Source: Thermoleophilia bacterium
GTDB taxonomy: Bacteria > Actinomycetota > Thermoleophilia > Solirubrobacterales > 70-9
Length of the DNA: 32,617 nt
NCBI GenBank assembly: GCA_016650125.1
Contig: JAENWT010000026.1
Span: 1-32,617 of the forward strand
Direction of reading: 5' to 3'
Every line of letters begins with the position of its first letter. Position 1 is the stretch's first letter. Below the pieces are notes generated by a model. The model searched no databases. It had not been told where the DNA came from and saw only the letters and a program-made list of their open reading frames with translations. Position numbers and translations under genes: made by a program. Positions 21,538 through 23,506 of this stretch are shown here, in pieces.

Positions 21538-21543
21538 TACATT
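21538..21543 (+). promoter_or_regulatory. -10-like box TACATT (leaderless type)
   Basis: TACATT lies 7 nt before GTG 21551. This decides the lipoprotein start in favour of the GTG over the TTG at 21542, which falls inside the box. Confidence 0.4.
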
Positions 21544-21550
21544 GCTGTCC

Positions 21551-22018
21551 GTGAGGGGAACAGTGTTTTGCATCACAGCAGTTCTGGCCGCGGGAGTCGT
21601 GCTATCCGCCTGCGGCTCCGAGACCCACGAAAACAACCCGCGGCCGCCGGTCCCTCCGGTGGTCAGTATCTCGATCTCGGACGACACGATCGAGGTCTCT
21701 CCGTTGGCCGTCGGTGTCCCCGGCAAACGCCCGGTGAACATCAACCAGAACCAGCTCGCGACGGAGGGCCAGGCAAATCCGAAGGCGCCGGCCGTCGTTG
21801 CGGTCGCGATCTCAAACCTCACCAACCGCAACACCGAGCTGATCCTCGAAGGCCCCGTGGAACGCTCCGAACCGCTGACCGCGACCGGATCCGGTTCCTT
21901 CCAGGCGGCGCTGCCGACCGGGATCTACCGCTTCAGCTCACCGGCCAGTTCCGGCACGGCGAGGTTCGCGGTCGGACCCAGCCGGGTTTCCGCTTCAGGG
22001 GACCTGCTCACGCCCTAG
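21551..22018 (+). CDS. Putative lipoprotein
   Basis: A 155-residue protein with a lipoprotein signal: a short basic start, the hydrophobic run VFCITAVLAAGVVLSAC and the lipobox LSAC, so the Cys would be lipidated. The mature part has a Pro-rich linker (ENNPRPPVPPV) followed by a beta-rich domain (SISDDTIEVSPLAVG, AVAISNLTNRNTELILEG, GIYRFSSPASSGTARFAV) that resembles a cupredoxin-like or other Ig-type fold without visible copper ligands. Function is unknown. Its stop codon lies inside the left arm of the inverted-repeat element 22013-22184, so insertion may have reset its 3' end. Confidence 0.65.
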   Translation: MRGTVFCITAVLAAGVVLSACGSETHENNPRPPVPPVVSISISDDTIEVSPLAVGVPGKRPVNINQNQLATEGQANPKAPAVVAVAISNLTNRNTELILEGPVERSEPLTATGSGSFQAALPTGIYRFSSPASSGTARFAVGPSRVSASGDLLTP

Positions 22019-22184
22019 ATGGTTGATTCCTAATTACCGGGCGTCCGGGGGCGCGCCCGATCAAGCAGATCAAGGAATCGGGCGGAGGGCTTGCCGGTGG
22101 CAAGTTCGAGTCCGATGACGAAGATATGCGCAGTATCGGGCGCGTCATCCGGGCGTGGGGGAATTAGGAATCAATCATCTAGGG
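22013..22184. mobile_element. 172-bp element with 23-bp terminal inverted repeats (MITE-like)
   Basis: The left arm 22013-22035 and right arm 22162-22184 are inverted copies with 22 of 23 positions identical. Pairing continues outside after a 3-nt bulge (TGCTC against GAGCA). The centre is GC-rich and holds a short open stretch ending in TAG within the right arm, with no usable start. No transposase is present. It is either a miniature non-autonomous transposon or a very long-range RNA stem just upstream of ccr. No clear target duplication is seen. Confidence 0.6.
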
Positions 22185-22210
22185 GAGCACCTTTGCCAGC
22201 GCCGCGAATG

Positions 22211-22216
22211 TAGGAT
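22211..22216 (+). promoter_or_regulatory. -10-like box TAGGAT upstream of ccr
   Basis: TAGGAT lies 33 nt before the ccr GTG, which unlike many neighbours has a clear GAGAGGAG ribosome-binding site. No good -35 is visible. The box is outside the inverted-repeat element. Confidence 0.35.
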
Positions 22217-22249
22217 GCGCGGACCCTTCCCGAACCCGAGAGGAGCGAA

Positions 22250-23506
22250 GTGCCACTAGACCTCGCTGATGTGAGCAAGCTTGACGTTGAGCCCGGAGAA
22301 CTCCCCGAAACCATGTCCGCATGGGTCATTCGGGAGGAAACCATGGGTGAGCCCAAGGACGCCTTCAAGCTCGAAGAGATCGAGACCCCGGAACCGGGTG
22401 CCTTCGAGGTAATCGTCCGCGTGATGGCGGCCGGCGTGAACTTCAACAACGTCTGGGCCGCCCTCGGCAAGCCCGTCTCGGTCTTCGGCTACGGCGACCA
22501 CCCCGAGTACGGACACCACATCGGCGGCTCCGATGCCTCGGGCATCGTCTGGAAGGTCGGCGAAGGCGTGACCCGCTGGAAGCCGGGCGACGAAGTCGTA
22601 GTCCACTGCAACCAGGCCTCATACGAGGACGTCGAAGTCCACGGACTCGACCCGCTCGCCGCTCCCAGCCAGAAGATCTGGGGATACGAGACCACCTGGG
22701 GCTCGTTCGCCCAGTACACCAAGGTCCAGGCCCAGCAGCTGCTCTCGAAGCCGAAGAACCTCTCGTGGGCCGAATCCGCTTCGTACGGACTCACCTACTT
22801 CACCGCGTATCGCATGCTGATCGACCAGGCGAAGATCCAGCCCGGCCACAACGTGCTGATCTGGGGCGCAGCCGGCGGACTCGGCGTTTTCGCAGTCCAG
22901 CTCTGCAAGGCCGCCGGTGCAAACGCGGTCGGCGTCGTCTCTTCCGACGAGAAGGGCGAACTGGTCAAGAGGCTCGGCGCGGTCGACTACATCAACCGGA
23001 ACGAGTTCTCCGGCATGATGCGGACCGGCAACGAGGACAAGGACGAAGAGAAGGCCCGTTTCAAGATCTCCCGTGACTTCGCGAAGAAGGTCAAAGGGAT
23101 CCTCGGGGATGCCCCCGACGTCGTCTTCGAACACGTCGGCCAGGCAACCTTCCCGACCTCGGTCTTCGTGGTCAAGCCATTCGGCAAGGTCGTCATCTGC
23201 GGCGCCACCTCGGGCTACAACCTCGACTTCGACGTGCGTTACCTGTGGATGCGCCAGAAGCAGATCATCGGCTCGCACTTCGCGAACGCCTACGAATGCA
23301 TGAAGGCCAACCAGCTGATGGCCGAAGGCAAGGTCAGCCCCGTGCTCTGGAAGACGATGGAATACGACGGTGTGGCCGATGCCCACCAGTTGCTCCACGA
23401 GAACAAGCACCTCGGCAAGATCGCCATCCTGGTCGGCGCGAAGGACGAAGACGAAGGCCGCGAAATCGAAGGCCCCGGAGCGATCCGGGCCGAAGTCGGC
23501 GCTTAG
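22250..23506 (+). CDS. ccr: Crotonyl-CoA carboxylase/reductase
   Basis: A 418-residue medium-chain reductase of the carboxylating enoyl-thioester reductase group, converting crotonyl-CoA, CO2 and NADPH to (2S)-ethylmalonyl-CoA. Long Ccr-type features are FNNVWAALGKPV, the GHHIGGSDASGIVWKVGEGV region, NADPH-binding WGAAGGLGVFAVQL, and IIGSHFANAYE. The CO2-pocket residues reported for the family are seen as Asn67, Glu147 and His343. The Phe that precedes the Glu appears here as Tyr146. Start is GTG with a good ribosome-binding site. Ethylmalonyl-CoA mutase is encoded 1.2 kb downstream on the same strand. Confidence 0.93.
   Translation: MPLDLADVSKLDVEPGELPETMSAWVIREETMGEPKDAFKLEEIETPEPGAFEVIVRVMAAGVNFNNVWAALGKPVSVFGYGDHPEYGHHIGGSDASGIVWKVGEGVTRWKPGDEVVVHCNQASYEDVEVHGLDPLAAPSQKIWGYETTWGSFAQYTKVQAQQLLSKPKNLSWAESASYGLTYFTAYRMLIDQAKIQPGHNVLIWGAAGGLGVFAVQLCKAAGANAVGVVSSDEKGELVKRLGAVDYINRNEFSGMMRTGNEDKDEEKARFKISRDFAKKVKGILGDAPDVVFEHVGQATFPTSVFVVKPFGKVVICGATSGYNLDFDVRYLWMRQKQIIGSHFANAYECMKANQLMAEGKVSPVLWKTMEYDGVADAHQLLHENKHLGKIAILVGAKDEDEGREIEGPGAIRAEVGA

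What the first reader, a model, noticed from the sequence alone, without database searches (positions are those of the whole stretch)
22013..22184. 172-bp inverted-repeat element directly upstream of ccr
The 23-bp ends match at 22 positions and the pairing continues beyond them. The left end contains the stop codon of the lipoprotein gene and the right end stops 27 nt before the ccr -10 box. It could be a MITE that altered both genes, or a long RNA stem insulating ccr. A short codon-like stretch inside hints at a captured gene fragment.
Basis: seen in the sequence. Interest (0 to 1): 0.5.

Follow-up and report, generated by a model that had tools for sequence, protein, structure and literature searches.

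The report
Mobile hairpin element at stop codons
A 168-base piece of DNA that jumped into the end of a lipoprotein gene is one copy of a widespread family of mobile elements whose shape, one long hairpin on one particular strand, is conserved although its letters change, suggesting that the folded strand itself does something.

Summary
The element proper is 22015-22182 (168 bp, CTAG at both ends); the outer 2 bp per side are flank. It is mobile: 4-5 copies in its own genome, related copies in other species, and none at the orthologous spot in nine relatives. It most likely inserted into a CTAG that held the lipoprotein's stop codon, so that protein is unchanged; the -10-like box of ccr is intact.

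In 22 aligned copies 92.8% of cells at 57 pairs are paired, 37 pairs with two-sided changes. The fold belongs to one strand: lower energy there in 56 of 56 copies, G-U pairs 468 against 120 in a sample of 56, purine-rich loops. A covariance model finds it in 141 of 299 genomes of the class, also with quite different terminal repeats. IS982-family elements in the same order share the 16-bp ends and the CTAG site, so an IS982 transposase is the likely mover, but the body is not IS-derived.

It is a new YPAL-like family of structured MITEs. Whether RNA or single-stranded DNA is the selected molecule is open. The 'gene fragment' is not coding.

The parts
22015..22182 (+). mobile hairpin element (168 bp counting CTAG at both ends); the + strand is the strand with the conserved fold
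22015..22030 (+). left terminal inverted repeat CTAGATGGTTGATTCC, identical over 16 bp to the ends of IS982-family elements of genome G060
22167..22182 (-). right terminal inverted repeat (15 of 16 to the same IS ends)
22016..22018 (+). TAG stop codon of the lipoprotein gene inside the target CTAG
22045..22053 (+). 5' side of the conserved wobble/bulge motif (CCGGGGGCG)
   Evidence: sequence; conservation
22143..22152 (+). 3' side of the conserved motif (CGTCATCCGG, bulged A at 22147)
   Evidence: sequence; conservation
22087..22107 (+). apical 9-bp stem with 3-nt loop; helix 4 of the consensus, 8 of 9 pairs with two-sided changes
21542..22018 (+). upstream lipoprotein-like gene (158 aa, lipobox LSAC read by eye; no NCBIfam match)
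22211..22216 (+). -10-like TAGGAT of ccr, also present in several relatives; the simple promoter scan did not report it
22250..23506 (+). ccr, crotonyl-CoA carboxylase/reductase (TIGR01751, 502 bits over a cut-off of 379); 81-90% identical in the 12 same-genus loci with a near full-length copy

Best explanation
It is one copy of a family of non-autonomous mobile elements (MITE-type, about 169 bp). Shown: the element is repeated and mobile, sits at CT-AG sites that are often stop codons, and its whole length is kept as one long hairpin on one defined strand while letters and even terminal repeats change. Inferred: an IS982-family transposase that recognises the CTAGATG..GATTCC ends moves it. 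Inferred: the folded single strand (an RNA transcript, or single-stranded DNA during transposition) matters for the element's own spread, because the fold is kept in copies of both orientations to genes. At this place it inserted into the CTAG that holds the lipoprotein stop codon, left that protein intact, and put a -107 kcal/mol stem between the lipoprotein mRNA and the ccr promoter region. It may end or protect the upstream transcript there as a by-product.
For: Copies: own genome C26, C8, C13 complete plus two contig ends. 56 distinct copies, 158-181 nt, in fetched loci. Empty sites: nine relatives with lipoprotein-ccr order have no model match between the two genes at E up to 1; sites of G025/G032 copies lack it in the sister genome. 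Two hairpins on C8 share one CTAG. IS982: transposase NF033520, 158 bits over a cut-off of 130, with ends identical to the window's left end over 16 bp; IS982-type ends at eight contig ends of the own genome. Fold: 57 pairs, 37 with two-sided changes, 0 of 500 shuffles as high, slid controls far lower. Strand: 56 of 56 lower energy; GU 468 vs 120, 14 of 14 clusters, unpaired bases 40% A, 39% G, 7% T. Spread: 141 of 299 class genomes. Exchange of ends: the body is found with CTAGAGGCCTGATG ends at 113-116 bits.
Against: The own genome's IS982 ends differ at 3 of 16 positions or more from the MITE's, and no complete IS982 is assembled there. The MITE body has no similarity to the IS interior. 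Homologous bodies with other terminal repeats suggest that one IS982 cannot be the mover of all of them. No target duplication longer than CT/CTAG can be proved. Orientation was set by body similarity, which for the most distant copies barely exceeds the reverse (e.g. L127 60 vs 49, L120 69 vs 57), or by a model that scores G-U pairs; only 22 of 56 elements pass p<0.05 alone, 2 go the other way. No expression data.
Confidence: 0.8

Rival explanations
1. The selected molecule is RNA: the element is a mobile RNA gene or 3'-UTR hairpin (YPAL-like) that protects or ends mRNAs, and hosts keep it for that.
For: G-U pairs kept as G-U at several columns, purine-rich loops, strand bias. Upstream gene on the same strand in 32 of 48 copies with an upstream gene called. 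YPAL precedent (role recalled; size and mobility in passages).
Against: By hand count the adjoining stop codon is on the 5' side in 16 cases and on the 3' side in 22, so many copies would be transcribed the wrong way by the gene they adjoin. No terminator-like U run or promoter match in 21900-22300.
Confidence: 0.35
2. The selected molecule is single-stranded DNA: a strand-specific transposition intermediate folds and is inserted 3' of CT, as in IS200/IS605 or REP/RAYT.
For: CT on the folding strand's 5' side without AG on the other side in 20 copies against 5 the reverse (p 0.004). No long target duplication. DNA folding also favours the same strand, -53.1 vs -41.0 kcal/mol. Orientation to genes not fixed.
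Against: The polarity fades under control: 16 vs 6 (p 0.05) without right ends reading CATCTG, and 13 vs 6 (p 0.17) or 9 vs 4 (p 0.27) when clusters are counted. The ends are shared with an IS982 element whose transposase has a DDE domain, not with a tyrosine transposase. Tyrosine transposase genes were not searched for.
Confidence: 0.2
3. Plain MITE: a passive palindrome moved by IS982, whose pairing is restored by template switching in quasi-palindromes, not by selection.
For: Long palindromes are known to be corrected by template switching (recalled). Terminal repeats match IS982.
Against: Correction would erase wobble pairs and internal loops, yet both are conserved at fixed positions and mainly on one strand. 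Neutral-decay simulation gives |delta GU| mean 2.6 (95% limit 6.0) against a mean of 6.2 observed.
Confidence: 0.15
4. Fixed regulatory or insulating structure of the ccr locus.
For: It lies directly between the lipoprotein stop codon and the ccr promoter region.
Against: Absent at this place in nine relatives that keep the gene order; present at unrelated places elsewhere.
Confidence: 0.03

Closest known systems
YPAL / RU-2 (Yersinia palindromic sequences)
   Same: About 167-168 bp, mobile, in many intergenic regions (passages of PMC2759123; length 168 also in a table passage of PMC2267715). From recall: often just downstream of stop codons and folding as RNA.
   Different: Different host group; no Yersinia sequence was compared. 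Here ends match IS982, the site is CT(AG), and a strand-specific fold is shown across many genera and several terminal-repeat types.
MITECca01, IS982-derived MITE of Cardinium (PMC9769881; abstract and section 4 read)
   Same: Short, non-coding, ends like an IS982-family element, many copies, mostly intergenic.
   Different: About 240 bp, one strain only, keeps sequence of the parental IS, no conserved fold reported in the text read. Here the body is unrelated to the IS interior and is widespread.
REP elements mobilised by RAYT (PMC3733652; start of abstract, passages)
   Same: Hairpin repeats; an E. coli RAYT recognises and cleaves single-stranded REP DNA (passage).
   Different: REPs are 20-40 bp with a GTAG or CGTC tag; these are about 169 bp with terminal repeats shared with a DDE-domain transposon.
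ERIC, NEMIS/Correia, Bcr1 repeats (recalled; ERIC, NEMIS and Bcr1 named as MITEs in a passage)
   Same: Bacterial MITEs often inserted next to genes and transcribed (same passage).
   Different: Other sizes, ends and hosts; not compared by sequence here.
IS982 family insertion sequences
   Same: Identical 16-bp ends and CTAG site in G060; at least one end of this type (up to 4 mismatches, some may be chance) in 18 of 22 loci with IS982 transposase matches.
   Different: About 0.85-1 kb with a transposase; no homology of the interior to the element body.

Membership tests
MITE (non-autonomous DNA transposon) | terminal inverted repeats | tested here: met
MITE (non-autonomous DNA transposon) | short and without a transposase or other coding capacity | tested here: met
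   168 bp
MITE (non-autonomous DNA transposon) | multiple dispersed copies and empty orthologous sites | tested here: met
MITE (non-autonomous DNA transposon) | target-site duplication | tested here: inconclusive
   CTAG flanks are palindromic; 36 of 56 rebuilt targets are CTAG, the others do not show equal 4-bp copies on both sides
MITE (non-autonomous DNA transposon) | a related autonomous element with the same ends | tested here: met
   IS982 of G060 identical over 16 bp; own genome 13 of 16 at best
internal-deletion derivative of IS982 | body derived from the IS interior | tested here: not met
   window element against ten IS982 sequences or ends: only the ends and one 10-bp word match
REP/RAYT | 20-40 bp, GTAG or CGTC tag at one end | tested here: not met
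   length 168, ends CTAG (definition)
REP/RAYT or IS200/IS605-like mobility | Y1 tyrosine transposase in the genome | not tested
YPAL | sequence homology to Yersinia YPAL | not tested
   no YPAL sequence fetched
known RNA family | match to an Rfam model | tested here: not met
   0 matches up to E = 1 in window 21900-22300

The most novel reading that the evidence does not exclude
A class of mobile elements whose transposition or maintenance depends on a folded single strand (RNA or ssDNA): the 169-nt fold, not the sequence, is the inherited trait, the terminal repeats are exchangeable modules for whatever transposase is present, and the elements settle beside the CT of stop codons, which survive the insertion.
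Probability: 0.27. Interest if true: 0.8.

Novelty: new variant of a known kind. Interest (0 to 1): 0.58.

Why it matters
Bacterial MITEs are often treated as sequence-defined by-products of insertion sequences. Here one family, not described in the papers listed by my searches, is found in nearly half of the sampled genomes of its class and keeps a strand-specific fold while its sequence and its terminal repeats change. That makes a general question testable: do bacterial MITEs carry a selected RNA or ssDNA? The stop-codon-preserving site also shows how such elements can multiply with little harm.

Tried and rejected
Captured gene fragment: frame 0 from the ATG in the left repeat is open in 20 of 32 non-redundant copies and in 22 of 32 on the other strand, not clearly more than a G+C-rich 50-codon frame gives (own rough estimate, no call). 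The window's own copy stops after 4 codons, frames differ between copies, the C13 copy has a +1 base, and Pfam finds nothing for the one 35-aa frame tried. Rejected.

Known RNA family: none in Rfam. Rejected.

Strand-biased C-to-T mutation as the source of G-U pairs: unpaired bases on the oriented strand are only 7% T. Judged unlikely.

Stop codons TGA or TAA turned into TAG by the element's first bases: I first read this from flanks CT|GA of G025_C7 and C77. The sister genome reads CTAG at both places (the C7 alignment is poor there), so a one-base-longer right end (CATCTG) fits as well. Withdrawn.

Polar insertion: 20 vs 5 shrank to 16 vs 6 and, by clusters, to 13 vs 6 or 9 vs 4. Kept only as a hint; the odds of the ssDNA rival and of the novel case were lowered for it.

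IS110 bridge-RNA-like element: considered because of the CT dinucleotide and similar RNA length (recalled). Set aside because flanks beyond CT look unconserved and the fold is one long hairpin; not formally tested.

Host insulation as the selected function: set aside because orientation to genes is not fixed.

Alignment of unoriented copies was unusable and was replaced by oriented copies.

Papers: searches listed no paper on such an element in Thermoleophilia or Solirubrobacter; some searches listed only part of what they found (15 of 948, 10 of 22, 10 of 14), and subscription journals are mostly not held.

Rows dropped: A1 uses 22 of the 56 copies, chosen as alignable with the window. One search uses 32 non-redundant copies plus 24 model hits; L230, L231 and L241 were left out as duplicates, as was a second, 205-nt hit in L237. 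One search uses 56 plus 19; L240, L246, L255, L216 and L213 were left out for unclear ends; one search adds the first four back (20 vs 6, p 0.009).

Full report
WHAT IS THERE. The inverted repeat is real. The + strand of 22003-22194 folds at -121 kcal/mol (z -11.1, 0 of 200 shuffles as good). Comparison with the other copies sets the limits at 22015-22182, 168 bp with CTAG at each end.

IT IS A MOBILE ELEMENT. The own genome (G000, 41 contigs, 2.83 Mb) holds complete copies on C26 (the window), C8 and C13 at 96-100% identity, plus one contig end with 142 nt (C14) and one with 24 nt (C5), which may be two halves of one copy. Among 61 genomes, own included, 9 have a blast match. A scan of genome contigs for both ends at the right distance gave 35 stretches, mainly Solirubrobacterales and Thermoleophilia MAGs, also five from one Propionibacteriaceae MAG, one Nocardioides and one MAG labelled Chloroflexi (binning errors possible). 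From the loci fetched by then I drew 56 distinct copies, 158-181 nt, 22 of them 169 nt.

EMPTY SITE AT ccr. The downstream gene is crotonyl-CoA carboxylase/reductase (TIGR01751). In nine relatives the lipoprotein gene lies directly upstream of ccr (in eight plsC is seen too). Their spacers are 75-193 nt and model R1 finds nothing between the two genes at E up to 1; weak partial matches lie elsewhere in L080, L082, L083, L084 and L090. G002 ends the lipoprotein with CCC TAG, so the CTAG with the stop codon can exist without the element; the window's lipoprotein ends at the corresponding residue. TAGGAT is kept in several relatives.

EMPTY SITES ELSEWHERE. For seven copies in G025 and G032 (one genus) joined flanks were searched and aligned. 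Three sites are clean: G032_C14, G032_C28 and G025_C83 correspond to a stretch without the element in the sister genome. G025_C112 corresponds to CTAG followed by about 50 other bases; G025_C77 aligns well on the right flank only; G025_C7 and C105 align poorly near the target. R1 lists no element at any of the seven (best match E 0.39, elsewhere in its locus).

TARGET. Writing each copy as XX[AG..CT]YY, XXYY is CTAG in 36 of 56 copies; the rest are CTAA or TTAG (7), CCAG or CTGG (4), CTGA or TCAG (2), ATAG or CTAT (2) and five single types. Two different hairpins on C8 (9554-9722 and 9719-9886) share one CTAG. With my simple ORF caller, 32 of 48 copies have the CTAG at a gene's stop codon, against 30 of 105 background CTAG sites in the same loci (p 1.5e-5) or 30 of 68 outside genes (p 0.02); some loci overlap, so the background is not fully independent. 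Avoidance of genes explains part of the enrichment.

POLARITY, A HINT ONLY. On the oriented strand the left flank is CT in 66 of 75 copies and the right flank AG in 51 of 75; discordant 20 against 5, p 0.004. With four more copies it is 20 against 6 (p 0.009); without copies whose right end reads CATCTG 16 against 6 (p 0.05); by clusters 13 against 6 (p 0.17) or 9 against 4 (p 0.27).

WHO MOVES IT. Genome G060 has three elements of about 1 kb with the same 16-bp ends. The 293-aa protein of one is an IS982-family transposase (NF033520, E 2.7e-46, above cut-off; DDE_Tnp_1). Matches to it occur in 9 of 61 genomes, own included; 18 of 22 such loci hold at least one end of this type at up to 4 mismatches. 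In the own genome five contig ends carry its 3' part and three its 5' part, with ends CTAGATGACTAGTTCC and CTAGATGAGTAGTTCC: a repeated IS982 that broke the assembly (inference). The element body has no similarity to the IS interior, so it is not a simple deletion derivative.

THE FOLD IS CONSERVED. Alignment A1 of 22 copies gives 57 consensus pairs, 37 with two-sided changes. Counts: 92.8% of 1247 cells paired (77.4% in shuffles), covariation score 0.467 against 0.187, none of 500 shuffles as high; sliding by one column drops the score to about 0.10. The outer 15 pairs, the terminal repeats, vary little; the evidence comes from the body. Several pairs stay G-U in most copies (columns 28-155: 18 GU, 4 GC; 36-146: 17 GU, 4 GC), the latter next to a bulged A in the motif GGGG/UCAUCC.

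ONE STRAND. Copies were oriented by body similarity (weak for the most distant ones). The homologous strand has the lower RNA energy in 56 of 56. In a set of 32 non-redundant copies and 24 model hits, G-U pairs are 468 on that strand and 120 on the other (53 up, 2 down, 1 tie); 14 of 14 clusters at 70% body identity agree; unpaired bases are 40% A, 39% G, 14% C, 7% T; the mean energy gap is 26.6 kcal/mol against 8.9 in a neutral-decay simulation (95% limit 22.6). Limits: only 22 of 56 are significant alone, and for model hits the orientation comes from a model that scores pairs. The same strand is favoured with DNA parameters (-53.1 vs -41.0), so the data do not tell RNA from ssDNA. For the window the RNA values are -107.4 and -75.6.

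SPREAD AND MODULAR ENDS. Covariance model R1 matches at E <= 1e-4 in 141 of 299 genomes of the class and 72 of 114 genera; some of these gave sequences to the model, and only 9 candidates per genome were scored, so copy numbers are lower bounds. In 396 genomes of the phylum 13 match, 11 of the same class (own included) and 2 outside. The body occurs with other terminal repeats: CTAGAGGCCTGATG (C8 and C12 of the own genome, 115.5 and 113.1 bits) and TCAGATGCCTGCC (L240), among others. The C8 example pairs 76 bp of 169 nt with 12 G-U pairs on one strand and none on the other.

ORIENTATION TO GENES. In 56 copies the upstream gene runs in the sense of the fold in 32, against it in 16, none called in 8; the downstream gene is convergent in 40, same-strand in 13, none in 3. 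Counting by hand, a stop codon adjoins the 5' end in 16 copies and the 3' end in 22. So the fold strand is not tied to read-through from the adjoining gene, and the selected role is probably in the element's own cycle (inference).

MECHANISM, STEP BY STEP. Shown: insertion, site preference, fold, strand. Hinted: polarity. Inferred: IS982 transposase acts on the ends; the folded strand takes part in mobility or maintenance; the ends can be exchanged. Local effect on ccr and the lipoprotein mRNA: possible, not tested.

AGAINST KNOWN KINDS. The closest known kind is YPAL/RU-2 (167-168 bp; passages; its stop-codon preference is recalled). An IS982-derived MITE is published for Cardinium. A 2008 survey notes that both strands usually share stem-loops except where GU pairing is essential (passage), which makes the one-strand bias here noteworthy. 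The seven paper searches listed no description of this family.

Noticed in passing
L002:1344-1512 (own genome C8:9554-9722) and C12:11980-12147: Hairpin elements with a homologous body but different terminal repeats (CTAGAGGCCTGATG..); the C8 one has 76 pairs with 12 G-U on one strand, 0 on the other.
   Followed up: yes
L058:1337-1503 (G033 C5): A 167-bp hairpin with a third kind of ends (CTAGTGGCCCTTCTC..) directly beside a window-type copy; not listed by model R1.
   Followed up: partly
L133:453-617 and L136:1859-2023: Hairpins of about 161 bp with yet other ends (AGCCCC..) and strong strand asymmetry; L136's is matched by model R1 (66 bits), L133's is not listed.
   Followed up: partly
G000 C8:112165-112254 and C13:53013-53066: Short remnants made of the two ends of the CTAGAGGCCTGATG-type element, apparently internal deletions.
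   Followed up: no
G000 ends of C8, C14, C22, C30, C35 and C23, C32, C33: IS982 ends at contig ends: a multi-copy IS982 probably broke the assembly, so the genome holds more of it than assembled.
   Followed up: partly
L078, L085, L086 upstream of ccr: In three relatives with other upstream sequence, a shared TGAGTYTWGCCTAAA-like stretch precedes ccr; possible operator.
   Followed up: no
L145:294-1185 (G037 C113): An 892-bp stretch between matching ends; G037 has no match to the IS982 transposase used; a 181-bp hairpin element forms its right part.
   Followed up: no
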